Below are positions 473 to 36,376 of a stretch of 64,000 nucleotides of DNA, one piece after another (position 1 is the first letter of the stretch; every line of letters begins with the position of its first letter). Under the pieces are notes generated by a model. The model was not told the DNA's origin. It saw only the letters and a program-made list of their open reading frames with translations, and made no database searches. Source of the stretch: Lineus longissimus (taxonomy: Eukaryota > Nemertea > Pilidiophora > Heteronemertea > Lineidae); contig NC_088323.1 in assembly GCF_910592395.1 (NCBI RefSeq), forward strand, positions 5,704,001 to 5,768,000, read 5' to 3'. Both the position numbers and the translations under genes were made by a program.

Positions 473-3400
473 TCAATTCTGTGGCACAGTAGTGTTCCGT
501 CGTCTAGCCTGTGCCATTTGTAAATTATAGTAGGCCCCCTTTTCTTGCATTAGTTGACTATGCGTTCCGATTTCCTTCACCTTCCCATTATGGATTACAG
601 CAATCTTGTCTGCGTTTTGTATCGTGGAGAGACGGTGAGCGATACATATGCATGTTCGTCCTTCTTGGGCCTTGTCGAGGGCCTCTTGGACGACCTGCAG
701 GTGAAATAAATCAATTAATCAGGGTTTTTTTTCAAGGTAGTTAAAAATGAACTCTAGCATTATTAAAGATCGACGTTAGTGTGACACCACATCTGGTGGC
801 GAATGGTCCTTCTTTGGCCTTGTCAAGGGTCTCTTGGACGACCTGCAGGTGAAATAAATCAAATAATCAGGGTTTTTTTCAAGGTAGTTAAAAATTAACT
901 CTAGCATTATTAAAGATCGACGTTAGTGTGACACCACATCTGGTGGCGAATGGTCCTTCTTTGGCCTTGTCAAGGGCCTCTTGGACGACCTGCAGGTGAA
1001 ATAAATCAATTAATCAGGGTTTTTTTTCAAGGTAGTTAAAAATGAACTCTAGCATTATTAAAGATCGACGTTAGTGTGACACCACATCTGGCAGCGAATG
1101 GTGGCAAAGTGGCACATTATACTTCTGGTGACCGTTAATCCCAGTCAGTATATCAGAGGTAGGTACATCACCTTTTCACTTTCCATATCTAGAGCTGATG
1201 TCGCCTCGTCTAACAATAGGATCTTCGGCTTTCGTATCAGAGCACGAGCGATTGCTACTCGCTGTTTCTGACCGCCGCTCAGCTGTGTTCCTTTGTCGCC
1301 AACATTTGTTTCGTAACCCTGAAAAGACGAACCGCAATATAAATCGGCCAAGAGGACAAGGAAGATCATGATACTCCAGGCAATGGACAATTTAGACAGA
1401 GACAAACCAGAACCAAAACAAAACAAATATGCACAAAGACAGAATGCCTAAGCCAACTTCGGATAATGCCATAAGCCACTATGACCCTTTGTTTTAAGTG
1501 AAATGCATGACAGGATAATGCCAAAAGCCACTATGACCCTTTGTTTTAAGTGAAATGCATGACCGGATAATGCCGTAAGCCACTATGACCCTTTGTTTTA
1601 AGTGAAATGCATGACCGGATAATGCCGTAAGCCACTATGACCCTTTGTTTTAAATGAAATGCATGACCGGATAATGCCGTAAGCCACTATGAACCTTTGT
1701 TTTAAGTGAAATGCATGACCGGATAATGCCGTAAGCCACTATGACCCTTTGTTTTAAGTGAAACGCACAACTGGTCAGTGCCTTAGCAGACTTCATTGAA
1801 ATTGTCTTTGAGGAAGAACACATACTTATAAGTATTATTGAGAGCAGACCGTTCGTTCAGTGGTCATGAAGTTGGACCCGTGACTTAAACTCGTCCATCT
1901 TCTACAGCCTTTGCTCTCTGTATCTTTGTTTTGGTTTCGGTAAATGCAAATTCTGACCCTTCCTGTTCTTCATGACATTGCCTATAGAATGAGACTGCTT
2001 GCCCAAGCATTTTTGTCAGCCAACACCACAATGAATGTCCTTCCCTGGGAGCAGCAACTGAAGTTAAGTCTATTGTCCAAGGTCGCAGTAATATGTCCTT
2101 AAGAGACCAATAACTTTGGTTGTAAACTTACATCAGGCAAATTCTGAATGAACGAATGAATGTTTGCCTTCCTCGCTGCTTCGATGATCTCATCCATGTG
2201 GATTTTGCGTGTGTTGTCGCCGTATGCAATGTTCTGGGCGATGCTCGCGTCGAAGAGCACTGGCTCCTGGGCGACGATTCCCAACTTGCTTCTGTACCAC
2301 TGGAGGTTCAAACTCCGAATCTCCTTACCGTCCACAGTCTGGAAATGGTGAAGATGATCATTGAAGATCAAATTTTGGGACACGAAATTAGAAAATAAGT
2401 GACCCCTTTGAAATTGGTGCCTTTTCAATGTCTATGGAAGTTCCATGGAAGTAGTGAAATTAACTGGTGGCTTAGAAATTAGGTCCTGTACAGATTCATG
2501 TGTGGAGAGCTCTACGGATATACAGTACTTTGCGGACACCTCCTCGAGCGAAACACCTTCCCTATTAGGGACACGGTTTTGCCCGAAATGTGTACCAAAT
2601 CTTTCGCTTACCACACTTCCACCAAACGGGTCATAAAACCGCTCAGCAAGCTGCACTGTCGTACTCTTCCCACAGCCACTAGTACCGACCAAGCCCAGAG
2701 TCTGACCAGGACTGATCGACACTGTAAGACCTCGCAGAATCTGTGTACCAGGTCGAGTCGGATAGGTGAACTCCACCTCGCCAAAGGAGACTTCACCCTT
2801 GAAATCTGAATCGGACTGGAAGAGAAGACATCGAGTAAGGAGGTTGAATAACTCCAAGGGTAACCAAAGGGAGGGGAGTAATGCAGTAAACAAAGTCCAG
2901 TTGAGTTTGAATGACAAAGATATATCGGACAACAGTTAGGCTAACAATAATTTTCAAAGCACAGTTGAGTGACTTGAATAGTAGTAGTCGAACAGCATGC
3001 AACACAATGTCAAATTTTTCGGTTGATTTTAGAAAAGAATGGTTCGCCAGACTCACCACTGTTTCACCATTAGTACTGTATGCATCAATAACGGGCTCTC
3101 TGTCAAGAAGTTGGAAGATCTTGGCAGCTGAGATCTTGGCCTTGGTATAATCGGGTGCCATGGAACTAGCTCGTCCAAAAGCCATACCACCAAACGTAAT
3201 GGCCGAGAAAATTCTGGAAAAAAGAACAACAACTCTGAATTCTAATTGAAAAAAAAGAAACTTCGATAGATTTCAAAAGGTGCATTTCAACTTTTTATCT
3301 TTTTTTTTTCCGATTGTAAAGTATTGCAATCTATTTGTAACGTACTCCAATCCAAATGTAATGTATTCCAATCCAATTGAAATGTATTCCACTGTGATGT

Positions 3401-6400
3401 ATTCTGATCCAATTGTAATGTATTCAAACCCAATTGTAGTGTATGCAATCCAATGTAATTGTAATGTATGGGTATTCCAATCCATTTCTTCACTGAATAA
3501 AGCATACTGACACCACTCATTTTATATTGTGGTGTCCTTAATATGGTGACATGCTTTAGAAAGATCTATCCTGCAATCTCTGAACTATAATACTAACTGA
3601 GAAATTCATGCTGAGAACTTGGGACAAATGCTAAACTTACTTGAAAATATCTATGAAGTTCATTTCACCTTCGTCAATTAGGAATGCACCGAAAGCAAAA
3701 GCGGCTGCGTAGGCAAAGTAGATGATGCTCTGTGTGAAGGCGTAGGCTATGCCGTAGACGTGCGCCCGCTTGGTACCAGCTCTGAAAGCAGTAGGTGCAG
3801 CTATAGAACGGAGGTTCTAAAAAGTACACAGAGTGGCAAAGAAAATGGCCCTTCTGCTTGAGAGTATTGGATTGAATATCGGATACACAAAGAACTGCGC
3901 CTGCTATGGTACCAGCCCTGAAAGCAGTAGGTGCAGCTATAGAACGGAGGTTCTAAAAAGTACACAGAGTGGCAAAGAAAATGGCCCTTCTACATGAGAG
4001 TATTGGCTATATATTGAATATCGGATACACAAAGAAGTGCAAGCAAAGTAAAGTTTCATGACGAGTGCAAGGGGCCTCATAGCCTCATGATTAGCGCTGC
4101 TGGCTACCTTGAAATAGGGCCGAGGGAGAACTCGGCATTGTGTTTCTGGATCAGCTGGTGTGGCTTTCAAGGAAGTAAAATTCCTAGTCCTTTGAATGAG
4201 ACATGAAACCGAGGTTCCTTGTAATTGGTGTAAAGGCCAGGGCAAGCTAAAGACTCCACCAAGTGAGAAACATGAGTAGCTTGCGTGGACTCTATATCTG
4301 GCCAAAGACAAGGTCACAAGGCCAATAAACCTGATTTGTGCCTAACCACATTGGCACGCATAGAACAGTACCTCCAAGTGCTGAGGGAACGTTGTAGAAG
4401 AAGAATGCATGACTGGTGCAAAAGCGACCAAAAAGAAGTCAAAAAAAGATTTTCTTCGCCTCATACTCACAAGAATACAGCCTCTGAATGATTGTTGTAT
4501 ATTTCCTCAAATTTCACCTCCTGAACAAGAGTGGCAACTGTCCGCACATTTTCTATGGCTTCAGTTGCAATCTGTAACAGAATAGTTGGATCCCCGTCAG
4601 GTGTGCAAGTAAAACAGTCACAAAGACTGACCTAGAGTAATGTTGATTTCTATCTAATTGAGTCACAATTAAATACATTGAATACTAACGGCGCAGGCCT
4701 TTAACAATGTCGGGACATACCGTACCTTTCCACCTTCTTCCATTTTTTTCTTGTCGCCCTTGGCGTAGCCATGTAACAATCGAACTTGGAGGAAACCTCC
4801 GACGGCCAGGAGAGGCATAAAACACAGCACGACAAGGGTCAACTTCCAGCCAAACACGAATGCTATGACGACACCAGTTCCTAGGTTGGCTATCGACTGG
4901 ATGATAGTGCCAACTCTATTACCAGTTGCCTGAAGAAAGCGAGCATTTTGTATAAGTACATTGTAAGTAAGTAAATCTTAACCCTTTCGATCCTCATCCA
5001 CCGCCAGGCAGTTAATACGTTCAGGAGTCGACTCTAGTGTCAATTTTTGAACATGACTCGCTTAATATCGCTCGTATGAACTCGGGACCAAGTGCATTTG
5101 ATAGAGACATTAGACTACCATCATAGGCATAGCTAGCGGGTGTATTCCACCCAGAAGTCACAAAAAAATGTGTTTCTGACATCCGTGGAAATTTTGTTTC
5201 GTTGCCTCACCCCTTTGACTAATGATGTGTCTGATGCCAGTCTTACACACAGCGCCCCAACTTGATTCTCGTGAAGATCAAACCACCCGACCTCCTGAAA
5301 AAGACAGACAATAGTTTGTTAACCTTATTGCGACGTGAACTTTACTTTCTGTAAAAGTACCCTTTTTTCATTTTCTCTTTGATTCTACACCCTAGTCTGA
5401 ACTCAAAATGCCCCCGTTTCAATAGAAAACTGATATGGTATGAGGCTTCTAAGCTATTTGACTGGTGGGCGGGGGGGGGGGGGCGTGACCAGAATCGTGA
5501 GATTATCACATGCCTACCTGGCGCAACATAGCTTTAAACGTCAAGTGGCGCAGCCGCTCTGTCAGTTGCTCACCGGACAACGTAAAGAAATAGCTCTGCA
5601 GGAAATGACAGATGGCCACGGTCGCGCCAATGGAGACCAGGATAATAGCGAACAGCTGGGATTGCTGGGCTTGCAAATCCATGTCAACAATGGCAAAGAC
5701 CTGGAGTAAAAAGAGAAAAAAACTTACAGGCATTTGAGGGAAAAGTCTGGCTATTTGAAGAAGATGGAAACACTGAAACTGTGCATTTTCACCCTCAAAT
5801 TTCCTCTTTACAGGACTTCCGCCTATATATTGATGACAGCCAACAATCACTCGAACAACTCATCCTGATTCATCAAAACTCCTACAAATTGCAAGTTTTT
5901 AGGCAGGGAGGAGTTGCCTCTCATTGTGACACATGATTATATGTAAGGTAAGGTGGTTCAATAGCCCCCAGAACAATTATAGCCTTTGTGTGCATTATGT
6001 GTACTGCCAGCCGATTCCTACACTGAGGGTTGCTATAATTGTACTGTGGCTATAATTGTACAACCTTACCTTACATATTTTTACAGTTCTTCGATCAGAT
6101 GACTTACCCCAAGAATTTCACTGAAGACAACCGCAAAAGCGGGTTGGACACCTCCGGTGAATATTGCCGAGATACAACCAATCATAATGAAGAGCCACTC
6201 GGAGGCGTTCATCGCCCAAACTCGTTTTATCGACACCTCTGGCACGTCTTCTTCCTGAACTTCTTTAGCGTCAGCCTGAAACGGAGCAGTTTTATCACAG
6301 GGATGTGAAAATGAGAGTTCAATAGCCCTGCAATTGACATGCAAAAACTGCCTGACAACACACATGGAATGATTATTTTATGTGTTTTGTCAGTAAGACT

Positions 6401-9400
6401 GTGTTTGTCAGTCATTTTGTACTCTCAAAGTCATATTATGATGAAATGGCCTAGTCTAGGTTATGCAGAGGCAATGGTGGTCAATTCAAGCAGAGACGGA
6501 ACAATGTCATTGATAAATAGAGTTCCGGTCATGCGCATGGAGGATGTTTCGAAGCATGAAATGACCCAGGAGAACATTCTTTACACCAAGGTGATTCACA
6601 GGGAATTAGAGGATCTTAATAAATATGTACATGAAGATTTGTAAATGTACCATTTTCCGCCAGAGTATTCACCAAGAAGACCTCCCAATTCATCCTAGAG
6701 GTAATAAAATTATTAAGTTAGAGAATAAGAAATGCTGTTAGTTACACTAAAACAAACCGCTATCTACCAAAACTGCTAATTATCAGTAATAACTACATGT
6801 ACTTCATAACATGTTAGGATTTTATTATGTTACTTCCTGGCCAGCACATGTCAATACCATCATTGTTAGATAACTCAATGAGTAAACCTATCATAGTTTA
6901 GTTAAGATAAGATTTTAGGAGCTGGGGCAATTTTACCCCAGGGCCACATTCACCCCACTTTACGATTATGTTAAAGGTACACACCTCCTCCTCATCTCCT
7001 GATTCTGATACAGCGCTGTTCAACCGACGTAAGCTGCCTCGCTGACCAAATTTATTCGAAGATCCTTGCCTCTTAAAATGACTGCTTTGTCTGGATAAAC
7101 CACGTTTCAGTTGGATGGAATCCTCGTCATCAAAGTCATCAGCTGAAACATCGAAAAGAATATACGATACTCGAAAGCCCAACAGTGTGTTTTCAATTCA
7201 AATTTTATTGGTGTAGGACCAACAAAGCTAGCAACAAAACAAACATCTGCCTGGAGACGAGACTGAAGTGAGACGTTCCTTCGCCATCGGGTTTTCCACA
7301 CAACCTTACCTGCTTCTGCGTCTTTGCTTTCTTCCCGTATCTGGCTGGTGACGAGATTGAAGTACAACCCTTCCTTCACCATCAGCGCATCATGGTTCCC
7401 CTGTTCCACCACCTGGCCATCTTTTATACCGAATATCACATCGGCATCACGTACCGTGGATAGGCGATGGGCTATCACAATGGTGGTACGTCCTCTGCTT
7501 GCCTGGAATGAACAAAGCAAGATAAAGAAAAGCCGTGGAATTACGGCATTGTGCATAACTGCATTTCTATTTTCCTGGACCACCAGTTTTAAAAACAGCG
7601 TACTGGTACGACCCAAAATCTTTCCTGAACTGTCTTACCTTTTCCAATGCCTCCTGCACAGCACTTTCACTGGCTGTATCCAAAGCAGACGTCGCTTCAT
7701 CTAGGAGCAGGATTTTAGGATTTCTGACCAACGCTCTCGCAATGGCTATCCTTTGTTTTTGGCCACCGCTCAGCTGGGCACCGCGCTCACCGACAAGAGT
7801 TTCAAACCCCTGGAGAGAAAATGGAAAATCATGGCATGTGTGGTCTGTTGTAGATATTCTCTGTAATCAGAATCTGATATAAAGTCTAAAGTCTTCGACT
7901 TACATCAGGAAGATCCTTAATGAAATTATAAGCATTCGCCTCTCTCGTTGCCTGCTCTATCTCAGCCTGGGTGACATCGTTCCGTCCATATCGAATATTC
8001 TCGACAATCGTCGTCGCGAAGAGGATCGGTTCCTGACTAACGATCCCGATGTGTCGACGTAACCATTTCACGTTCATGTCACGGATGTCATGGCCATCAA
8101 TTCTAACCACACCGTCCTCGGGGTCGTAGAACCTCTGTAGCAGTTGCATTGTGGTACTTTTACCACATCCGCTTGGTCCGACGAACGCCACAGTCTGCCC
8201 GACGGACACCGAAACACCAAACCCATGCATAATCTGAAGTCAAAACATGCAAACTACAGAATTCATCTGGTGAGAAGAAAAACTCACATGTGGTTTTGTG
8301 CCACAGTCTGTGTGCCTCAGTTACCAACTTAGACTCTGTAACTTAGAGATTTGTCAACTAATTACATTTTAGGCTTCAAAACCACAGGTTGAGGGTCACT
8401 GTCTCACTGCGCCACTCAAAAAACAAAAAGTGACCTTGAAATAATCTACAGCTGATGAGGTGGAGCCTTACGTTAGAGTTTTAAGCTGTACTGAGGTGGG
8501 TCACTTTACTAACTTTTTGATCCGGCCTTGCAGGATACCGAAAGTGGATGTCATCAAACTCCACATTTCCGACAATCTCTGGCTTTTCGCCCTCGTCTGA
8601 ACTGCTGTCAATAGATGGCACTTGGTCGATGATCTCGTAGATTGATGCTGCGGCGGCTCGTGCGTTAGTGAATCCCTCTAAGTGAGGCAGGGCATTGCCG
8701 ATGGCCATGGCACCAATGAGGACACCGAAGAACACCTGCAAGAAATTTATGAATAGCGATGAAAACCTTATTAAAGGGGGGGAACGACTTTACAATCCCC
8801 GATGATGTGAAAACTCAGAAAAAACTGATGTCAAGTGCGATCGGGGTAACCCGCGATTATTACATCACAACTGCGGAGCACTACTGAATCACAGGCCCTT
8901 GAGTACATGTCTTTATAATAGGGGTAGAAGGCGTAAAATAGGCGTAAAATAGGGGTATAAGCCCAGGAACTAGGCTAGCATAGGCTAGCATAGAGAATTT
9001 CTCTATGCTAGTCTAGTTCCTGGGCTTATACCCCTACCCCTATTTTACGCCTATTTTAGGCATAAAATAGGGGTATAAGCCCAGGAACTAGGCTAGCATA
9101 GAGAAGCCTAGTTCCTGGGCTTATACCCCTATTTTACGCCTATTTTACGCCTTCTACCCCTATTATAAAGACATGTACTCAAGGGCCTGTGACTGAATGT
9201 TTCCATCAAACCTACCTGTAAAATTACGCCAGCAGTGGTCCTCGCCTCCCTAATCATCTTGGCACCGTACCAGAAGGCCAGGGCGAAGGAACTGAAAATG
9301 ACAAACCAGATCACGCCTTGGCCCAAGCCAACACTTATGCCCTTCTTGATGCCCATCTTCTTGGCTTCGGTCAGATTTTCATTGTACCTGTAAGCAAGTA

Positions 9401-12400
9401 TAGATAGAGACAGCTTTGGGATGTATAGGTGGAGTTATGGCGGGAAAAGATGTCATGTCATAAACAGAGCTTGGTACGAGATGTGGGAGGGGGGAAATCA
9501 ATGACGTCAGACAAGGGAGAAAACATGTCAACAGTAGCCACTGTGGTCTTATCTCATGGTGATCAGATGAGTCCCTTTGGTGTCCCTCCTAACTTGCACC
9601 TATCGCAAACTGTGTTTTAGTCATTAATTTAGGCCACACCAATCTGATCGGCTGAGTGGGGCCGCTACACTTCCCAACCCCCCAGACCAATCTGCACTAA
9701 TGGGGTCTGACATTGAAACAGTGAAACAATGCCAAGAAAACCTCTTCTTTTTCTTTCAATGACTCTGAAAAACGCATGAAGACATATTTGATATTTCCTG
9801 TGTAGTCCTCCATGGGACGTGAACCAAAACTCAAAATTGGTGTGGCCTTACCTGTCACTCTCCTTCTTCTCGCCACCGAAGGCCACCACCGTCCTGATCG
9901 CACCGAGCACCTCTTCTGCTACAGCTCCTGCCTTGGCATATGCTTTCAATTCCTTCTGAGTGAATCCTTGAAGAAGCTGAAGAAGGAACAACATATAACA
10001 GTGTGAAAGAGAGGGGGAGGTTGTTAAAGTCTGCTGGGCTGTTGCCCAAGTTCCCCCACATCCCATCAGGCCTGATTTTCTCACGGTTTTTGTAGCATTG
10101 GCAACTCAGGAGTAGGTCTATCATTTCCCTGAGAAACCTCTAGGCAAGCCGGGTACCAACTCACACTCTTTAGTCGAGAGAAGCAATGTAGCACAGGTAA
10201 GGAAGGAAGACCAGATAATCAGGCTGTAAACTGAATGGTTTTCGCACCATGTCAGAGTCTCGTAACGTCGAAATCTGGCGTGATATAACCAATGGTCACC
10301 ACCTGCTTGTGGTCTAAAGCAAACAGCCCCCAGTATGCTACAGAGGAATGGTATAAGATCTTACTCGAGTCATGACAAAAGCAGTGATTCCTACGAAGGG
10401 TACCAGCGAGAGCATGATGAGAGCTAACTCCCAGTTCTTTGCAAAGCCGAGGACGAATGCCGCAATGAAGGTGGTGATGCCTTGAAGAAACTGGGCGACT
10501 TTGTCTCCAATGCCGTCATGGATGGTGTTTAGATCACTGGAAAAAACATTATGATGTGCGCAAATGAAATTGGTTGAAATCTTGAGAGCAGACGTTGCCA
10601 AAGGTGCTGTATTCCATCCCATCACCCACCACTTTTCTATTAGGAGGAGCCAGTTCCAGTGGGGGTATATTTTGATTGAAAAACTCAGTTGAAAAACTCC
10701 CAAGAAAATTTTAAAAGAGGTTATTTTTTTCAGAATAACTCTTCGGACTCATCAAAATGTACATTTTTGAGAATAATGATTAACATTCATTACACTGTGA
10801 GGTTTGAACTAGCGGCTGCTTGACCATCAGCCATTAGTCAGAGCCACTAGGCCACCATAACTCCGAGGTATTCTAGTAGAACCTCTACAGTAATGTACTT
10901 ACTCAGCAAGTCTGGAGTTCAGCTCGCCAATCTGATGTGTGTCGAACCAACTAATCTCCTGCTTCAGGATAGAATGGAAGAAGAGTCTGCGGATGGTCTT
11001 GGTCTGTCGCTCCGCAGTCCACATCCAGAATGCAATCGACAAGTATGACATGACGAGAGTGCCGATACCAACGTACACGAAATAGACACAGAATGGCGAG
11101 ATCAAACTGTACATGTTGACTGTGTAATTTTGCCTGGAAAAAAAATCATTAGATTTACAAAAGTCGCAACAATTTTGATGGACTATAGCACTGGACTTGG
11201 GAGCATATATTGTTATTTCATATTCGAAATATTTTCCTGAACGTGTAACACTTTGCACTGCATGAGGAACGAGCTAATGTAGTATGTCAGTAACGTGTGC
11301 AAGGGGAGGAGCATACGACTGACTCTAGTATTCGAGGATAGATCTGTACTTATAAAGTTCTCTCATTGTTTTTATCATCTGATCGCTGACAAAGAAGTTG
11401 GGAACTTGGTGGTAGGGGGAAAGTCACAACAAGGAATGTTAATTATGACCAGGACTGTAGTTGGCAACTTGGTGGTAGCGGGAAAGTCACAACAAGGAAT
11501 GTTAATTATGACCAAGACTGTAGTTGGCAACTTGGTGGAAGCGGGAAAGTCACAACAAGGAATGTTAATTGTGACCAGGACTGTAGTTGGCAATTTGGTG
11601 GTAGCGGGAAAGTCACAACAAGGAATGTTAATTATGACCAGGACTGTACTTACGCAGTTGTCGCATTGTTTTTCATCATCTGATCGCCGACGAAGAAGTC
11701 GGCCACTTGGCCATAGATGAGAAGGTTCAAGGGAAAGGCGGCACCCTGGCCCACAGACCCCAGAGCCCCAAGGAACATCAGTAGGATGTCTAGTTTGTCG
11801 TGAAATCGAAACTGAAAATGAACCAAAAGTGGAAAAAGTTATGACTTAAAGGGGTACACCGTGTGTATTTACTGGTGGTTAAAAAAATAGAGATGCAGTA
11901 AGATAGAACGCCGTAGGGCAGGCAGTTCCTTTTGATAGCGAATTTTGCACCAGCAATACAAAGCACCTCCATTTTCCACATCTCAGTGGGTATCGATGCA
12001 ACTGATGCATCAAGTCATTACTATGGAATTCCCATACACAAGTTCCCGTATGGAACCCTATTGCCCACATGTTTAGCAGGCCAAACTAGCAACTGATCTC
12101 CCCCCCCCCCGAGTTTCAGGATATGAGAAGGTACATTTTTGTGGTCAGTGACAATGAATTAAAAGTACAATAATAATACTTACCAACTCAAGCACTCCCA
12201 CTTTTTTTATTTCAACTTTTTCCCTAAAAAGAAAAATTGCAACTTTTTGCTTAGCGAGTCAAGATGAACACTGCAGTTAATCTCAAAATACTTATAAAAA
12301 ATACTAGGAGTTTAAGATTTAAATGGGCATTATCAATCTGATATATTTGCTTTATGCGTGAGCACTTGGAACCAAGTTATATTTCAGTCGTCTAGGAATA

Positions 12401-12864
12401 TATAAAAGGTAATTTTTTCAAATAACTTACTTTTCATCCTTTTTACTCCCACTGTCATCTCCATCATCACCGCCGTCATCTTTTTTGGCACTGTCAACAT
12501 CCGGATCAAAGTCAACCTTCCCGTTAACACTTAGGTTAACATCAACATCGCCGTTAACCGTTCCATTAACCTTCAAGTCTCCATTAACTTTTCCGTTAGC
12601 AGTGTCATCACTGTTAACTGAAGTATTATCCGTTATGTACCTGTCACCAGGGGTGTACGGAGGTAAATCCTCTGACAAATCGTCTGTTAAATTATTCGGC
12701 ATTGATATAATCAAATTTCCTTCTCCAACTCCGTCTATTTCAGCATTATCATCCATCAGCAAAGTATCTGATATGTCCTCTAAATTGATTTCGTCTCCAT
12801 GGTAATTCTGACCCGAGGACAATACATTCTCTAATGGAGGTGGTTCAGTTATTGTGTCACCCAT
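473..12864 (-). CDS. ABCB1-like: ABCB1-like full ABC transporter (P-glycoprotein / multidrug-resistance type), 23 coding exons, about 1407 aa
   Basis: Coding exons, 5' to 3': 12864-12431, 12223-12184, 11811-11654, 11133-10903, 10536-10365, 9976-9852, 9387-9216, 8735-8514, 8233-7904, 7809-7639, 7502-7310, 7142-6985, 6275-6108, 5700-5518, 5294-5211, 4929-4726, 4571-4471, 3781-3641, 3213-3057, 2815-2612, 2338-2132, 1318-1172, 694-473. All junctions keep phase and give an open frame. The architecture is TMD1-NBD1-linker-TMD2-NBD2. NBD1 has Walker [10 protein letters not shown] (about 537-545), signature LSGGQ (641-645) and Walker B ILLLDE (661-666). NBD2 has GTSGCGKST (1192-1200), LSGGQ (1298-1302) and ILLLDE. 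Both catalytic glutamates are present, so both ATP sites look competent. The linker (about 750-802) carries RRLNS and other R-x-x-S kinase-type sites. Loop 1 has two N-glycosylation sequons (NAT, NYT). The family exports hydrophobic compounds across the plasma membrane. Exon 15 uses a GTGAGG donor; stopping at the earlier GTAAGA would delete a conserved 12-residue stretch. The N-terminus is about 120 residues longer than in human P-glycoprotein. Confidence 0.95.
658..1105. repeat. 147-148 bp tandem repeat copying the 5' edge of ABCB exon 23
   Basis: Three units begin at 658, 806 and 953. Each holds the first 36 or so nt of the last ABCB exon, its CTGCAG acceptor, the pyrimidine tract and about 110 nt of intron. 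The unit at 658 is part of the true exon; the other two are intronic copies that keep an intact acceptor. A partial fourth unit decays near 1100. Confidence 0.9.
1460..1770. repeat. 52-bp minisatellite, about 6 copies
   Basis: The unit begins GGATAATGCCGTAAGCCACT and is repeated about every 52 bp in ABCB intron 22 (starts near 1462, 1514, 1565, 1617, 1669, 1721). Copies differ by only one to three bases, so expansion is recent. There is no spacer structure and no coding frame. Confidence 0.9.
3340..3490. repeat. Degenerate short tandem repeat in ABCB intron 18
   Basis: Imperfect units of about 15-16 bp, of the type AATGTATTCCAATCCAATTG, run through this stretch. It lies between exons 18 and 19 and has no other visible feature. 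Confidence 0.7.
3771..4040. repeat. Tandem duplication (period 136 bp) of the 5' edge of ABCB exon 18
   Basis: The first copy (3771-3906) contains the start of exon 18, its acceptor and the intron upstream. The second copy (3907 to about 4040) repeats it with about 90 percent identity and still carries an acceptor-like CAG. An insertion follows the second copy. Confidence 0.85.
4070..4325 (+). mobile_element. tRNA-derived SINE, older copy (family also at 40.14 kb)
   Basis: This matches the element at 40140-40470 through its tRNA-like head (GCCT.ATGATTAGCGCTGCTGGC), the box region GGGCCGAGGGAGAACTC, the body motif GGCTTTCAAGGAAGTAAAAT and the downstream GCCAGGGCAAG. The B box has decayed. It lies in ABCB intron 17, opposite to the gene. 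Confidence 0.75.
5939..6078. mobile_element. Small palindromic MITE-like element in ABCB intron 13
   Basis: The ends are inverted copies of ATATGTAAGGTAAGGT, and the inner arms (CAATTATAGCC and GGCTATAATTG) also pair. The total length is about 140 bp and there are no coding signals. It ends about 30 bp from the donor of exon 13. Confidence 0.65.
8889..9192. mobile_element. 304-bp nested palindromic transposon-like element with CTGAA target duplication
   Basis: The terminal inverted repeat starts TCACAGGCCCTTGAGTACAT and continues for about 90 bp at both ends with near identity. A second palindrome (around CTAGCATAG) sits in the middle, with inner inverted copies of the arm. The direct repeat CTGAA flanks it at 8884-8888 and 9193-9197. 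It lies in ABCB intron 7, 23 bp downstream of the exon 7 donor boundary. There is no open frame, so it is non-autonomous. Confidence 0.85.
10797..10862 (-). mobile_element. tRNA-like SINE fragment
   Basis: On the minus strand it reads TGGCCTAGTGGCTCTGAC (A-box-like) followed about 30 bp later by AGTTCAAACCTC (B-box-like). It is a short remnant in ABCB intron 4, not a functional tRNA. Confidence 0.45.
11348..11397 (-). pseudogene. Decayed partial copy of ABCB exon 3 (donor side)
   Basis: This 50-bp stretch matches the 3' end of exon 3 (11648-11700) at most positions, including the residues V-G-D-x-M and the donor region, which has mutated from ACTTAC to ACTTAT on the plus strand. It lies 300 bp downstream of the real exon, inside intron 3, at the edge of the 63-bp repeat array. 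Confidence 0.75.
11398..11649. repeat. 63-bp minisatellite, four copies, open in one frame
   Basis: Four 63-bp units sit between the real exon 3 and its decayed copy. The period is a multiple of three, so one plus-strand frame is open through all units (a 21-residue repeat, [20 protein letters not shown]). It lies opposite to, and inside an intron of, the ABCB gene, and I see no evidence that it is translated. Confidence 0.85.
12431..12864 (-). CDS. ABCB first coding exon: acidic N-terminal extension with VNG repeats
   Basis: This exon encodes the first 144 residues of the ABCB protein, before homology to the transporter fold begins in exon 2 (the basic strand [13 protein letters not shown]) and exon 3. 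It starts [14 protein letters not shown], is rich in D, N and S, and contains a degenerate repeat of V-N-G-(x)2-4 between residues about 95 and 125. It ends in an acidic/basic stretch ([17 protein letters not shown]). No membrane segment is visible, so it should be cytosolic. The ATG at 12864 is the first in frame after a spliced 5' UTR acceptor at about 12934. Confidence 0.85.
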
Positions 12865-13145
12865 TTTTAGTGTCCAGTTAAAATTCTTTTAAATTCTCAC
12901 TCTATTTGAGTTGGTCTTGTTACTTTTTTACATCTGGAAAGGAGAAACAATTTTCAAAATCAAAGCAATCAACGCCAAAATATATGTTTGAATATACGTT
13001 TAAATTCAAGAAGTCACAGCAGTCCGGCATAAGGACCATTTTATGTTAAATTAGAAAGGTATAGTCAATATGGGCGAGTTTCAGAAAGCGAATTTCAAAC
13101 TCCGAATCAAAATGTTCCATGCAAACCAGAAATGAGACACCTACC
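12865..13145 (-). promoter_or_regulatory. ABCB 5' UTR with a probable leader intron
   Basis: On the minus strand a pyrimidine tract and CAG lie just above 12933, so the first coding exon probably starts at 12933 with 69 nt of 5' UTR. A good donor (AAG|GTAGGTGTC) lies at 13145/13144, which would end an upstream non-coding exon. This is inferred from splice consensus only. Confidence 0.4.
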
Positions 13146-27249: not shown

Positions 27250-27495
27250 TATAATAATATAATAATAATAATGAGTCTTTTATACTGCGCAATTCCGTAA
27301 CACTATACTATAGTTCTCGCTCAAAGCGCTTTGGGATATCATATTATTACCCCGGTCTCCACAGAAATCAATCAGGGGTTTCAAGGAGCAACCACAAGGC
27401 GCTAGGGGAACTAAACAGTGACTCGGCCGGGAGTGGAACCCATGACCTCCTGATCATGAGGCAGACTCTCTTCCACTGCGCTAATGCTGCCCCGG
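27250..27495 (-). mobile_element. tRNA-derived SINE (GCGCAGTGGAAGAGAG family), copy 1
   Basis: Read on the minus strand, the head GCATTAGCGCAGTGGAAGAG and B-box-like GGTCATGGGTTCCACTCCC are followed by a body with CCAAAGCGCTTTGAGCGAGA and a tail of repeated ATT. The copy at 32.06 kb is nearly identical, so the family was active recently. Confidence 0.85.
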
Positions 27496-29647: not shown

Positions 29648-32600
29648 TTATTCTTTTTCATCCTCGGCTGGCTCATAGTCTGATCTAAGACAGGGGAAGC
29701 AATGTTTAAACCTTTTGTGCAAAGAATTAGGCCTTCTTCCACTGTTTTGGTGGTCGACTCTTTCCCTGAAAAAACCCAAATTGAAACAATTTCAAATGAT
29801 TACACGTATAATAAATATAGATGACAAGAAGTGTCAGGTTTGCATTCACTTTATGATCTTTGCTGTTCCGTTACCATGTACTTTGAGACAGTATTTCTGC
29901 AGACTGCGACACAACAGCCAAACGTCTAGTAGACTGTTGAAATGATGAATCTAAACTTACTCTTCAACTAGAGGCGCAGTTGCACTGACATCTGCTCCTG
30001 CCTCACCACTAGCACTGCCATCTGCATCAGGGAGTGCTGGAGCTGGTTCTGGTTCTGGAGTTGGTTCTGGAGCTGGTGCTGGAGCTGGTTCTGGAGCTGG
30101 TGCCGGAGCTGGTTCCGGAGCTGGTGCTGGTGCCGGAGCTGGTGTTGGTGCTGGTGCTGCGGCTGGTGCTGGAGCTGCTGCTGGTTTCTTCTCAAAATCT
30201 CTGATTTCGACGGAAGAGCCATTCTCGATGGCTTTTGGCAGCACCTTCTGCTCTCGTGCGATCTCATACTGAACATGGCGGAAAAGTAATTCCGAAAGAT
30301 CACCATCCTTCAAGTTTTTATCTGAAATTGGGAAAATACATTTTTGAATATCGATAGTTTTTGACTGTTACAATTATGAATGAAATAGTTACAACAACAG
30401 GCCCAAGGGCCTGGCACTCAGCTGAAATATTGTCTACATATTTTATAGATATGCTACCAGTATGATGGCAAGATGTAAAAATTAGACGTTTCATTCCCCC
30501 ACGCATTTAGCTTGCAAGACTAACCCACCTTCATATCGGATGAAAACTATCCGGTTCTTGATGTCCATTGGCTCATCCTTGTGGTTGATCAGCATGTACA
30601 ACTTGCAGATGAAACGATTCCACTCTGTTTGCAGGATATCCTCGTTGGTGAGGAATCCCTCTTGCATCATCCGGTACATGGTATCAGCCTGTGTGTTGAA
30701 CTCAACAAAGGCATAGTACTGAAACAACGAGGTCCACCGAAATTAAGGAAAGTCTCTACGGAGCGCATCGATACAAGGTAGGGTCAGCTGGGGATGACAA
30801 GCAGTGGTTGTTCAATGAAGATAGCTTGGCTGCATGGCTCCGGACGACTTCCTTTCCTTGTAACCAATGGATCTGCAATGCTGCGGTGGCAGGTTTGAAC
30901 ACAGCCAATCATATCACCAACAGACGACAGACAAGTTTACAAAAGAAGATGGTTGAAGTATTCTGAGGTAATTACAACGCAAACTACTTGTTACAATATA
31001 TCAATTACACATCACTGAAAACCAGGTTGCAGTCTACGCTGTACTTCGAATTGAAATAGCTGAAAAAAACCTCACCTCCTTCCCATCTCTGTCATTGATG
31101 CAGTAGGCTTTAGGCGTGTAGTCCCTTCCTGCTTTCATGATGTGCGGCATGTTGATTTCCTTGTCATCCACAAGTTTGATTTGTGAGTCAACGTCTGAAA
31201 CCTTTCCTGGGCAATGGCACGAATGGGGGTGCAAGATGAAGACCTTGTGCGACATTTTCTCATTCACAAACTTTTCCTTAAGGGCAGGGCACTGATCTAT
31301 GACATCTCTCACCTCTGAAATTGACAGGGTTTACCTTTTTCACAGGTGATTGATAATATACATCAACTAGCATTAGTGTACATGTAGCGATTTGATGCAT
31401 TTGGTAGTTAGTACATATGAACAACTGGATCTACTCCATATTTTTTATTGAACTGACATTAATTTCAGTTGAATTACATTTTAAACTTAACTTATATCAG
31501 GCTATTATGGCTGCTAGGATCACTATAGACTACAGCCTGTGCCTGATCACTGAATTTCTTTTGATGCGATAATGACGGTCACAAATTAAAGTCAATGAAG
31601 AGTAAGAAGAAAATGAAAAAGTGACTTACTTGGAATTCTAATCTTCAGGAACCTGTAGTACCAACTCATAGCAAGTCCTGTGCCAACGTTGTTGAACTGC
31701 AGGTCATATGCCATATCCTGGACATCACCTGGAGAAATTGACAATGTTGATAGTGCAAGAATAGATATGAACAACTGTGTGAAATGTACAGGCTAAATCT
31801 ACACCAATTTTGACAGGTTTTGTGAAATAAATTTGTTTGCATCAGCCAAAACATAAGTTTGTGTACTAGATTTCACTGACCGTGGGCATGTGATAGAGTA
31901 AATTCAGTTACCTTCCAGCTCTCTGGTGACTTTGGCCTGCCAGTCTGAGCTCTTGTAACTGACATTGGTGAACAGAAGCTGTAGTTCCAGCACTTTTGGG
32001 TGGTCGGCATTTTCACTCAGGCAGTTCAGACACACCAGAAACCTGAAAGAGAATTTAGAAGTCAATAATAATAATAATAATAATGAGTCTTTTATAAAGC
32101 GCAATTCCGTGACACTATAGTTCTCGCTCAAAGCGCTTTGGGATATCATATTATTACCCCGGTCTCCACAGAAATCAATCAGGGGTTTCAAGGAGCAACC
32201 ACAAGGCGCTCACTTGAACTCGACCAGTAGGGGAACTAAGCAGTGACTCGGCCGGGAGTCGAACCCACGACCTCCTGATCATGAGGCCGACTCTCTTCCA
32301 CTGCGCTACCGATTCCAGTGCCGCAGCCAATTTCGATAAGGCCATGTTTAAGGTAGTGCAACTTTGGAGTAGAGTTGAAGGCCATTTTTAACGTATTTAC
32401 CACTAGATGACATTGATCTACATTTTCTAAATCATCCTCTGACCACCCGGAATGTAGATGCTCAAAGTTATTTCGCATCGCTCAGTAACGGGTGCAACAG
32501 GAGGGACATGTGAATCAACTTGAAACCTCACCTTCGGTTTTTAATGCGGTAACCCTTATCCAAAATTTTGTAGAACCATTTCGCAAAGGCATCTGTTTTC

Positions 32601-35600
32601 ACAAATTCATCAGTCAAGACCATGAAGATCCTATTCGACTCCTCTATGAGTGCATCTCCAAACTTACTCCGATCGACAGTGAGAGGACAGTCGGATATCT
32701 GCTTTTTATCAGGAAGATTGTCCACAAATTCCTTGATATCTCCATCTCCGCTGCAGACATAGATTACACCTGTTTGGTTGGTGTCTATTGTTCCAGCTTC
32801 TTGAACAGAACTTTTTATCTCCGATGAGCATGTCTCCTTCATGCGATTGAAGAGGTCGTCAGCGAGGTCGTTTTCATCTGCATTTTCTGTTATCAAGAGA
32901 AGCAATATTTTACATTTTATTGCGGTGCGAGTTGACATTGTATTCTAATCAACTGCTTGTGCTTGGCAAAGTTGGTTAAATTATGTAAGATTTTATGGAG
33001 TCGTCAAGTCGGGGAAAATTAAAACAGGATTAACTGAAAGAGATGATTTGAAGCAAGGTGAGTTTTTGCCCATGAACATTTCTAATCAGCTCAAAACAGG
33101 AATAAATATTCACCTTCGTAATTTAAAAGGGTTAAATTTCAGCAGACTAGATGAAGAAATTTACCTGCTTCTGTGTCAAACTCGATGAAGTCAAATTTTG
33201 ACTCATCGATTTCAATCTTTTCATTATAGGTATACTTCATGAACAGCTTCATTTTCTCAAAGCAGTATTTGCCCTGTATTCGCATGTCGTGTTCACTGAA
33301 ATTGACAAAGTCTTTGTTTTCGTCGTCTCTCATTTCTGACAGGCCTTGCACGATATTGAGGAAGTAGACAACACCGTAGTAGGACTGGAAACGAAAGTGA
33401 CAAGTTTGTAAATGTATTTGATAGAAGGTCATTTCCCTGTGGACTAAATGTGAAAGAAGTAACTGGTAGTCTGACTGATGCGATGGTATTATATCATGCA
33501 CGCAACAACAAAGACTTCAAGTTTACTTGAGATATGGATGACTGGCACGATGTCATGGCAGAAAACTCAAGAGAGCCATGTCTCTTGTGACGACGAGCAA
33601 CAGGGTTCTTATCCATTTCCTGACGGCGTCCACCATTGGGTCATGCAAGCCATCATTTACTCGAGGGTGGGGTGTTGCGTTGACTTCACTGTATGATGAA
33701 AATACAGTGGAATCTCCCTGAGGGGATACCTCTCTATTAAGGACAACCTCTCTCTTAAGGACACTAGTTTTGGTCCCAAACAGGTTGTTTCCATTCAATT
33801 TGACCTCTCTAATCAGGACGCCTCTCTGTTAAGGACAGCATTTGTCAGTCCCGAGGGTGTCCTTAATAGAGAGGTTCTACTGTACTACTCTACAGGTTCT
33901 ACTCTACAGAATAATTGCACTACACTAACCTCACTTCCATCCCTCGACTTCACTTCTCGGATGTCAAAATCGTAATTACGCCGTAGACCAGCTCGGTCTA
34001 TTGGAAGTTTGTTTATGTTGAATATGATTCGCTCACTGTTCATTATCTCGGGCTCTCTGCAGTTCGTTGTGAAAATAATGAACATCTTTTTTGAAATTCT
34101 GTTTTCTGGGATTTCTGGGTTATTTTTTCGCCAGGTGGAGGTCAGAATATTATTTTCAAAATCTGAAGATAAATGTAATAAAAGAATCTATTAGAAATAA
34201 AGGAAATTTTTCTGAAAGATTTTCAAACCACCATATGCGTCTAAGAATTGAGACCTACATGTATGCCGACAAGAAAAAACCACACCTTTATAGATTCATG
34301 CACTTGAAAAAATGGGTCCAAATATTTTGATTAAAAATGATTTGACTAACTCACCTGGCAAAATATACACAAGATATCCAAAGTAATATGACCACGCCAA
34401 ACCAGTGCCTGAGTTCATGAAGGCAAAGTCCACCGTTTTTGGTTCATCTGTGATGAGAAAAATATGAGGACCAAAGGCATTAATGCGGACAGAACTGAAA
34501 CAGCACTTGATCTCTTCCATTGAAACAAAAGGGAACATTTGAAACACCAGGATACTGTGGGTTCATTAGGTAAGTATTTAGCCAACACAATAATACAGAT
34601 ATCGCCAGGGAGCGGGACACAGCCAAGGTCAGCAGTTAGATCGCGAACGACCGTCCAACTCCCTTCCGAACAACTACTGGAAAAAGTTGTAGATCGTACC
34701 TTGGAGAAATGGTCGTAAATCATTCATGATCGATTCCATTTCCTTCATCTGGCGGCCGACCAGAACCCATCTGAGTTGGAATTCAGATAGCTCTGGTGGA
34801 AGAGTTAGGAACTGGTCAATGTGAATAATGACAGCCACGAAACCCTGTTCACTTCGTTTCATTATCTAAAAGAAGAAACAATAATTATTTTTTTATTAAT
34901 TATTTTTTTATTACACAATTTGTCACCGTTTTCACGAACGGTCCAATCAAATTTTTTTTGATTTTGTGTACTCAGCATATTTAAGTTATTACATTTTTGT
35001 TGATTCGCCAAACTTAAAGTGATACTATGATGTGATTTACAACTTTGCCGAAATACGTAAAGCTCAAATTTTCCACTTTTGATTAGATTTACATGTATTA
35101 TAAAATCGCTGTTTTAATCGATTGTAAACCACCGCGACAATGTTCATGTTGTGACGTCATCAACGAAAACGTCGTCGGCGTAGCGCAATTTCAACGGCAT
35201 CGAAGCGAGCCGTCCGGGCGGGATTAAAACCATCAATTTCTAGAATATGTGCATTTCGATTCGAAAACCTTACTGATTTATGAGAAAGTGACGTAGTCAT
35301 TTGTCAAAAACAGCTAAAACATTATATGGTGAAATTTGACACGAGTACCCTTTAATTGGTTGTAAGATCTAAACGCCTTCATGTAAAAGTCTACAAATTA
35401 GAGAGAAGAACCATTGACCTATATGATTAGGTTTGGTGGCAAAACCGAAAAAAGTTAAATTTGTTGACGGGTCACTTCGTGAAAATAGCGACGAATTATT
35501 GTGACATGCTCACTTGTGATTACAGTGTTGAGTCGAGCAACTCTAACCAACCACCTGTAACTCTTTAGTAAATTATGAAATAGGCCAAAACCTTGGTACC

Positions 35601-36376
35601 TACCTTAGTGACTGTTTCAACAAGCTGTTCTTTGCAGAACTTGGCATCGGGAAAAGCCAGGACCACTCTTTTATATTTCAGGACTTGGGATGTTTCCTCC
35701 AATATCTCAACAACATTTTTTCCACCAGTTCGCTTCACTTCTCGGATTTCAAGGGGAAGGTCGTTTCTTATAAGTTCTTCATTGAGAGCTACCAGGAAGC
35801 CCTTCTCATCTTGATAGGTTTCAGATGTTTCATCACACTGATGGATAAGAAGATTTTTCTGGACTAACACTTCCTGAAAAAGTATCATTAAGAATATATA
35901 AGACAAACACACACCATTTGGATGTATCCTGGAGCGGTCCACAGCCGTAGGCATGACATTTTCACAGAAGAATAAATGATACATAAACTATATGACTGGC
36001 AAAAAAAACCTATGTCTTAATATCTAAATTTATGTACATTTCAAGCATTGTAGGTCCCTGTGAGCGTACCTGGGAATTGAAAAAACATGACCAGTGTACA
36101 AACACCACTTTATCTTTTTGGGCCGCTCTGTCAACTATTGGGCCGTTTTTTTATTGGAACGCTGATTTTTGGACACTCCATATAACCTGGATAACTGTGC
36201 AGTATTTGGAAAAAGAAACTAGAACTACAGTGATAACTCTTAAATGAAATAAGTTATGAGCATCATGTTAAAAGTAGTTTTTAGTATGTCACGATTACAA
36301 TGCAAGTTATGCTGCAATGTCTAAAGAGTTAAAATATTCTTACCTCAGTGCCAGATTCAGCAGGTTGCTTCGACAT
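29648..36376 (-). CDS. TIR-STING-TIR-STING tandem fusion protein, 13 coding exons, 835 aa
   Basis: Exons, 5' to 3': 36376-36344, 35873-35604, 34865-34700, 34447-34355, 34162-33930, 33384-33165, 32886-32532, 32042-31912, 31728-31630, 31314-31076, 30718-30529, 30321-29961, 29765-29648; total 2508 nt, all in phase. TIR-1 is about 12-150, STING-1 157-366, TIR-2 376-498, STING-2 501-700, and an Ala/Pro-rich tail follows. STING-1 has GTGLAWSYYFGYLVYILP (170-187), almost identical to the vertebrate STING dimer/ligand helix, then DRAGLRRNY. STING-2 has GTGLAMSWYYRFL (516-528). The two STING units share intron phases (1, 1, 0, 1), so one arose by duplication. No transmembrane segment is present, unlike vertebrate STING. 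STING binds cyclic dinucleotides; TIR domains signal by assembly or cleave NAD. Single-unit TIR-STING fusions are known from oysters and bacteria. TIR calls rest on strand/helix pattern and position, and are less sure than STING. Confidence 0.87.
29961..30321 (-). CDS. TIR-STING exon 12: STING-2 C-terminal helix and Ala/Pro-rich repeat
   Basis: The exon starts with the last STING helix (DKNLKDGDLSELLFRHVQ), the counterpart of the human segment before the C-terminal tail. It then encodes about 60 residues of A-P, E-P and T-P repeats from 6-bp and 18-bp DNA repeats, likely length-variable between individuals. The following exon ends the protein with a basic, cysteine-bearing tail (HKRFKHCFPCLRSDYEPAED). 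Confidence 0.85.
32063..32309 (-). mobile_element. tRNA-derived SINE (GCGCAGTGGAAGAGAG family), copy 2
   Basis: Nearly identical to the copy at 27.25 kb, with the (ATT)n tail at 32063-32085 and the tRNA-like head ending at 32309. It includes an extra CACTTGAACTCGACCAG missing from copy 1. It lies in the intron between TIR-STING exons 7 and 8, in the same sense as the gene, with its tail 20 bp from the acceptor side of exon 8. Confidence 0.85.
33705..33882. mobile_element. Pogo/Tigger-like MITE, copy 4 (complete)
   Basis: 178 bp, CAGTGGAATCTCCCTGAGGG to GAGAGGTTCTACTG, with TA at both sides. It lies between STING-1 exons 5 and 6, only 48 bp from the exon 5 donor. Confidence 0.85.

What the first reader, a model, noticed from the sequence alone, without database searches (positions are those of the whole stretch)
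29648..36376. A single gene encodes TIR-STING-TIR-STING
Thirteen in-phase exons give one 835-residue chain with two STING ligand-binding domains, each preceded by a TIR-like domain. Single TIR-STING fusions are known in oysters and bacteria; a covalent tandem could place both halves of the STING dimer and both TIRs in one molecule. It would be a self-contained cyclic-dinucleotide sensor with built-in signalling domains. The STING calls are strong (GTGLAWSYYFGYL). The TIR calls rest on alternating strand/helix pattern and position.
Basis: partly seen in the sequence, partly recalled or inferred. Interest (0 to 1): 0.95.

Follow-up and report, generated by a model that had tools for sequence, protein, structure and literature searches.

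The report
Tandem two-STING immune receptor gene
A ribbon worm carries a small family of genes in which two copies of the immune sensor STING, each preceded by a probable TIR signalling domain, are joined into one protein, and the two copies have diverged in complementary ways, so one molecule may form both unequal halves of a receptor that is normally built from two identical ones.

Summary
Thirteen GT-AG exons on the minus strand give an 835-residue chain with two STING ligand-binding domains (Pfam 3.4e-40). The genome is Lineus longissimus: an annotated protein of that ribbon worm is encoded exactly (730 of 747 residues) on another contig. A genome search found at least four loci with this layout (window, C9, two head to head on C11), both halves in order on one strand. 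A two-gene split is unlikely: the first STING's last helix lies in the exon that opens the second half, and one paralog has only 156 nt between the halves. The TIR calls are plausible, not proven: Pfam TIR_2 matches the C9 paralog (4e-5, below cut-off) but not the window's own domains; profile comparison favours TIR2, TIR1 marginally; AlphaFold2 was inconclusive. In all four copies the two STING halves lack opposite pocket residues: the first keeps R232 but lacks E260 and T263; the second the reverse; R238 and Y240 are in all eight. I infer a natural single-chain, asymmetric STING pseudo-dimer with probably non-enzymatic TIRs. My (capped) literature searches found no tandem STING. Expression, ligand and fold are untested.

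The parts
36344..36376 (-). Exon 1: start codon and 11 residues
   Evidence: Model; short N-terminus also in paralog P0001; no homology support of its own
35604..35873 (-). Exon 2: most of TIR-like domain 1
   Evidence: aligns with P0001 residues about 18-102; the paralog's region matches TIR_2 weakly
34700..34865 (-). Exon 3: end of TIR-like domain 1
   Evidence: matching exons in both C11 paralogs
34355..34447 (-). Exon 4: STING-1 first helix (NSGTGLAWSYYFGYL)
33930..34162 (-). Exon 5: STING-1 ligand-binding domain, carries R232, R238, Y240 equivalents
33165..33384 (-). Exon 6: STING-1 ligand-binding domain, E260 and T263 positions replaced by Y and N
32887..33164 (-). Intron 6 between the two halves, 278 nt (156 nt in C11 copy A, 4365 nt in copy B)
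32828..32886 (-). Start of exon 7: last helix of STING-1 (ENADENDLADDLFNRMKETC)
   Evidence: 3 of 5000 shuffles; alignment
32532..32827 (-). Rest of exon 7: linker and most of TIR-like domain 2
31912..32042 (-). Exon 8: end of TIR-like domain 2
31630..31728 (-). Exon 9: STING-2 first helix (NVGTGLAMSWYYRFL)
31076..31314 (-). Exon 10: STING-2 ligand-binding domain, R238 and Y240 kept, no R232
30529..30718 (-). Exon 11: STING-2 ligand-binding domain, E260 and T263 kept
29961..30321 (-). Exon 12: last helix of STING-2, then Pro/Ala/Glu-rich tail coded by a 6-nt repeat (30034-30185)
   Evidence: tail absent from P0001
29648..29765 (-). Exon 13: C-terminal tail and stop
   Evidence: open frame and splice site only, no homology

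Best explanation
The gene encodes a TIR-STING-TIR-STING receptor (soluble by my reading; no transmembrane predictor was run), one of at least four such genes in Lineus longissimus. An ancestral TIR-STING unit was duplicated in tandem inside one gene before the four genes separated. The two STING domains of one chain most likely pair as an intramolecular heterodimer and close over one cyclic dinucleotide; one half supplies R232, the other E260 and T263, and both supply R238 and Y240, so the pocket is built asymmetric. Closure would bring the two TIRs together and seed TIR assembly on downstream adaptors rather than NAD+ cleavage, because in neither TIR is a glutamate near the catalytic place kept in all four copies. 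Shown here: open 13-exon structure, two STING domains, four loci, common exon order, complementary pocket residues. Inferred: TIR fold, pairing in cis, ligand, signalling. My odds: single gene 0.95, TIR folds 0.75, heterodimeric ligand pocket (cis or trans) 0.6, cis pairing 0.5, non-enzymatic TIRs 0.6 (lowered from 0.7 on checking, since some copies have a glutamate one to three residues from the expected place).
For: 13-exon frame; two STING_LBD stretches; annotated L. longissimus paralog, same layout, same genome; two more copies on C11, exons 2-11 in order; STING-1's last helix lies in exon 7; tree: four second STINGs together at 100, four first STINGs split from the rest at 99; R232 4/4 against 0/4, E260 0/4 against 4/4, T263 0/4 against 4/4; R238, Y240, S162 8/8; dN/dS 0.25-0.55 in the four domains of the C11 pair; oyster TIR-STING 6wt6 first by profile, 6wt7 eighth by fold; weak TIR signals.
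Against: No transcript, protein or ligand data; one species only. The window's TIR regions match no TIR family; in the four-copy sets TIR_2 matched 1 of 4 members each and consensus sequences gave none; the profile comparisons with known TIRs had low probabilities, 8.7% and 1.4%. AlphaFold2 of the C9 paralog had mean pLDDT 48 and modelled the second TIR-like region as low-confidence helices. Two of the four copies are 85% identical, so they count nearly as one. The R232 call in the second STING depends on a loop alignment. Linker and cis pairing were not modelled.
Confidence: 0.58

Rival explanations
1. The chain pairs in trans: each STING domain dimerises with the same domain (or the opposite one) of another chain, giving cross-linked higher oligomers; the tandem serves avidity or filament building rather than one self-contained pocket.
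For: STINGs are described as homodimers that form filaments (PMC12424679 and PMC9402430, passages). Nothing here fixes the pairing.
Against: Homodimers of the first STING would lack E260 and T263 on both sides, homodimers of the second would lack R232 on both sides; the complementary pattern fits a mixed pair better, though a mixed pair could also form in trans.
Confidence: 0.27
2. Only one half is a working receptor; the other is a decaying or regulatory pseudo-receptor, and residue losses reflect relaxed constraint.
For: The first STING lacks two pocket contacts; the second has arginine in place of G166 in two of four copies.
Against: R238, Y240 and S162 are kept in 8 of 8 domains; dN/dS is 0.41 for the first and 0.55 for the second STING of the C11 pair; losses are complementary and position-specific.
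Confidence: 0.2
3. Two neighbouring TIR-STING genes read as one by mistake.
For: An in-frame ATG lies in intron 6 (about 32938) and read-through of exon 6 meets a stop about 33139.
Against: Exon 7 opens with the last helix of the first STING; intron 6 is 278 nt here and 156 nt in C11 copy A; the annotated C9 protein joins both halves; both halves lie in order at each of the four loci found.
Confidence: 0.04
4. The regions before the STING domains are not TIRs but another alpha/beta domain.
For: No TIR family match in the window's own domains; the two regions show no similarity to each other (probability 0.3%); low profile probabilities.
Against: TIR_2 matches the C9 paralog at 4.1e-5 with two stretches, the best over profile 10-109 of 122; the second-region profile aligns with MyD88/TLR2/SARM1 from box 2 to box 3 and 0 of 150 column shuffles reach its score; TIR is the known animal fusion partner of STING in this place (PMC10732462, passages).
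Confidence: 0.22

Closest known systems
Metazoan TIR-STING of the oyster Crassostrea gigas (PDB 6wt6, 6wt7)
   Same: TIR before a STING ligand-binding domain; first among solved sequences for the two-copy profile (E 1.3e-16, over the second STING), third for the window chain alone (4.3e-12), eighth by fold.
   Different: One unit per chain, homodimer; here two diverged units in one chain with complementary pocket residues, and TIR-like domains that the TIR families do not recognise in the window gene.
Bacterial TIR-STING (Sphingobacterium faecium SfSTING)
   Same: Same domain order within a unit; filament-forming, ligand-gated TIR (PMC9402430, passages).
   Different: Homodimer with catalytic glutamate E84 cleaving NAD+; here no glutamate near that place is kept in all four copies (alignment weak), and the STING domains are of the animal type.
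Animal transmembrane STING (human STING, Nematostella STING)
   Same: Ligand-binding domain, GLAWSYY-type first helix in the first STING, R238 and Y240.
   Different: Two unlike ligand-binding domains per chain and no transmembrane stretch by eye. A search of this genome with the Nematostella protein found only two of the tandem loci, at weak E-values.

Membership tests
STING (Pfam PF15009) | STING ligand-binding domain | tested here: met
   3.4e-40, two stretches; for paralog P0001, 1.1e-35, two stretches
STING (Pfam PF15009) | Universal pocket residues (stacking tyrosine Y167, lid arginine R238, Y240) | tested here: met
   R238 and Y240 8 of 8; Y167 7 of 8 (F in the window's second STING)
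STING (Pfam PF15009) | R232, E260 and T263 together in one domain | tested here: not met
   split between the two domains in 4 of 4 copies; 5 of 6 other STINGs compared have all three
STING (Pfam PF15009) | Homodimer binding a cyclic dinucleotide | not testable with these tools
   Needs protein
Metazoan TIR-STING | TIR domain before the STING domain | tested here: inconclusive
   weak support, below Pfam cut-off, none in the window's own domains
Metazoan TIR-STING | One TIR and one STING per chain | tested here: not met
   two units at each of the four loci found
Bacterial TIR-STING (NADase) | Catalytic glutamate of the TIR | tested here: inconclusive
   By reading alignments: no glutamate at or near the expected place is kept in all four copies; in TIR1 two of four, in TIR2 three of four copies have one 1-3 residues away; register uncertain
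TIR domain (PF13676, PF01582) | Score above the family cut-off | tested here: not met
   best 24.5 bits for TIR_2 in the paralog, cut-off 28; PF01582 13.4 bits, cut-off 21.3

The most novel reading that the evidence does not exclude
A natural single-chain STING: two non-equivalent ligand-binding domains fold onto each other, one contributing R232 and the other E260 and T263, giving a receptor whose pocket is asymmetric by construction and matched to an asymmetric cyclic dinucleotide, with both TIRs activated inside one molecule. It would be a break with the homodimeric plan described for STINGs.
Probability: 0.42. Interest if true: 0.88.

Novelty: new variant of a known kind. Interest (0 to 1): 0.72.

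Why it matters
STING is described as a homodimer across the tree of life (PMC12424679, passage), so each half of the pocket must do both jobs. A gene family with two specialised halves in one chain would separate those jobs by evolution and show which residues read which part of the ligand. It would also give a ready-made single-chain STING for structural and mutational work, and a clear question about what this ribbon worm senses with it.

Tried and rejected
Two-gene split: rejected. My first reading of P0001 as an ortholog from a second nemertean was wrong: the gene is in the same genome, so the support comes from paralogs, not from a second species. No second species with the layout was found: three protein searches gave P0001 and 13 other STING proteins. 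No protein identical to the window's chain was listed in any of the three.

Genome searches go exon by exon and are insensitive: the STING family search itself found one exon only, at C11. So four loci is a lower bound, and other STINGs may be missed.

TIR tests that failed: Pfam on the window's own regions, Pfam on members of the four-copy alignments (TIR_2 in 1 of 4 each), Pfam on typed consensus sequences, solved-structure profile searches, NCBIfam on P0001 and PADLOC on P0001 and one region, TIR1 against TIR2. TIR1 against reference TIRs was, by my reading, in the wrong register and 1 of 150 shuffles reached its score.

AlphaFold2: alignment A9 of the C9 paralog, window exons 2 and 7 and five STINGs; mean pLDDT 48.4, only the second STING domain is confident; not usable for the TIR or pairing question. 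The second job was not used. Alignments A4 and A5 with more exon pieces were dropped because MAFFT misplaced them.

Literature: nine search listings (eight on STING, on the genome; lists were capped, 25 of 540 papers, 40 of 48). I saw passages of nine papers (PMC9980059, PMC10732462, PMC8204762, PMC13142454 with outline, PMC8218723, PMC9402430, PMC12424679, PMC5869526, PMC8195603) and of the genome note PMC8593623; none was read whole. The two papers with 'two STING domains' (PMC12421889, PMC8748872) concern bacterial STING by title, the two with 'STING heterodimer' (PMC10458946, PMC9620234) tumour splicing and agonist chemistry; I saw only their listings.

Full report
Pfam finds two STING ligand-binding domains (3.4e-40). 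Four introns of each half fall at matching places and phases (before the first STING helix, phase 1; after it, phase 1; in the middle of the domain, phase 0; before its last helix, phase 1; read), as expected from duplication of one TIR-STING unit. The intron inside the TIR-like region does not match between halves (phase 0 and phase 2).

Which genome, and how many copies. The window is G000:C16:5704001-5768000, in an assembly of 391,118,348 bases. The only close protein found is LOC135493862 isoform X2 of Lineus longissimus (P0001, 747 aa). A genome search with P0001 (44 matches) puts it on C9:12257648-12270567, and 730 of its 747 residues are encoded there exactly (residues 1-17 were not in the stretches fetched). 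Size and contigs agree with the published L. longissimus assembly (391 Mb; C11 19,188,348 and C16 16,534,156 bases against 19.19 and 16.53 Mb in Table 2 of PMC8593623, passages; C9 is 20,542,500 bases against 20.55 Mb, and P0001's contig 20,549,149, a small difference I cannot explain). The other matches below E 0.9 fall in the window gene and in two loci on C11, on opposite strands; the five matches elsewhere have E 0.9 or more and I take them as noise. So there are at least four loci, each with both halves in order on one strand. For both C11 copies exons 2-11 were found without stops (copy A 658, copy B 672 residues). The exon search demanded the window's phases, so equal phase is partly by construction; exon lengths 93, 233, 131 and 99 nt recur exactly, with one GC donor in copy A and two exon ends set by hand. 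P0001's own breaks lie at, or within about five residues of, the window's ten (my comparison). Identities: window to C9 47% (327 of 699), to the C11 copies 42-43%, C11 copies to each other 85%. The C11 copies are mosaic: exons 4-11 differ little (dS 0.04-0.06), exons 2-3 a lot (dS 1.55), which suggests gene conversion.

One gene or two. An in-frame ATG in intron 6 and a stop after exon 6 read-through allow a split on paper. Against it: the first 20 residues of exon 7 match the last helix of other STINGs (3 of 5,000 shuffles; the 15 best of 816 windows of the chain lie here or at the second STING's own end; the C9 paralog's segment alone is not significant, 395 of 5,000); intron 6 is 278 nt here, 156 nt in C11 copy A and 4365 nt in copy B; NCBI's C9 protein runs through the junction.

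Are the other domains TIRs. The C9 paralog matches TIR_2 at 4.1e-5 over two stretches (24.5 bits, cut-off 28), and its two regions alone at 0.029 and 0.015. Its first region has a Pro-Gly turn (KPTPGEPE) where TIRs have their BB loop (my reading). The window's regions match no TIR family. A four-copy profile of the second region aligns with MyD88/TLR2/SARM1 in the box 2 to box 3 register (score 24.0; best of 150 column shuffles 18.0; reversed 13.3), but hhalign gives it a probability of only 8.7%; the first region scores 18.2 (1.4%), in a wrong register by my reading, with 1 of 150 shuffles higher. AlphaFold2 on the C9 paralog gave mean pLDDT 48.4; its N-terminal 120 residues show strand-helix-strand-helix-strand-helix at block means of 39-66, the second region came out helical at under 50; only the second STING is confident, with STING structures as fold matches (oyster 6wt7 at rank 8). 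I hold TIR as likely (0.75), not shown. No glutamate near the NADase place is kept in all four copies of either region, but two of four (TIR1) and three of four (TIR2) have one within one to three residues, and the alignments are weak there.

The pocket. On one alignment (human numbering recalled, not from a call, anchored on the fish STING P0002), S162, R238 and Y240 are in 8 of 8 domains of the four copies. R232 is in 4 of 4 first STINGs and 0 of 4 second ones (H, K, D, D; loop alignment uncertain). E260 is in 0 of 4 first (Y, Y, D, D) and 4 of 4 second. T263 is in 0 of 4 first (N, N, N, K) and 4 of 4 second. Six other STINGs, of the 13 returned, have R232 6 of 6, E260 6 of 6, T263 5 of 6. 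The second STING of the window and of C9 has R in place of G166. The tree has the four second STINGs together (100) and the four first STINGs split from all else (99), so the two halves diverged before the genes did. The C11 copies are near-identical there, so this is about three independent observations. dN/dS in the C11 pair is 0.25-0.55 in the four domains.

How it most likely works. Each half lacks what the other keeps, which fits a mixed pair better than two like pairs. [quoted passage not shown] Ligand, pairing and output are inferred.

What is known. Single TIR-STINGs are known from oyster and bacteria, called rare in eukaryotes and independently evolved (PMC10732462, passages). PMC12424679 (passages) calls the V-shaped homodimer conserved in all STING proteins. 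Eight full-text searches on STING, including exact phrases for tandem, double and heterodimeric STING, listed no such animal protein; two lists were capped, and most papers of subscription journals are not held. The C9 gene is already a predicted, unnamed protein in NCBI. So this is a new variant of a known kind: a tandem, asymmetric TIR-STING family, found in one species so far.

Noticed in passing
window 2102-12888, minus strand: ABC transporter exons (ABC_tran 3.8e-19 at 7889-8239, ABC_membrane 4.5e-13 at 10341-10748) lie on the same strand as the STING gene, in the low-coordinate part of the window; the outer limits are from open frames read by eye.
   Followed up: partly
window 27307-27483 and 32114-32308: Two nearly identical copies (100% over 97 nt, 95% over 81 nt) of a dispersed repeat, one inside intron 7 of the STING gene; looks tRNA-like by eye, perhaps a SINE.
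   Followed up: partly
window 30034-30185: A 6-nt tandem repeat codes the Pro/Ala/Glu-rich tail in exon 12; the C9 paralog lacks the tail.
   Followed up: partly
C11 loci L002-L006: The two C11 copies stand on opposite strands, start to start, and are mosaic: exons 4-11 and introns 5, 7, 8 and 9 (94-99%) alike, exons 2-3 and intron 2 (43%) diverged, as after gene conversion.
   Followed up: partly
C11 copy A, exon 9: The splice donor after exon 9 reads GC instead of GT.
   Followed up: no
G000, whole genome: A search with Nematostella transmembrane STING found only two matches, both in tandem loci (best E 0.18); the worm may lack an ordinary STING, though exon-by-exon search is insensitive.
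   Followed up: partly
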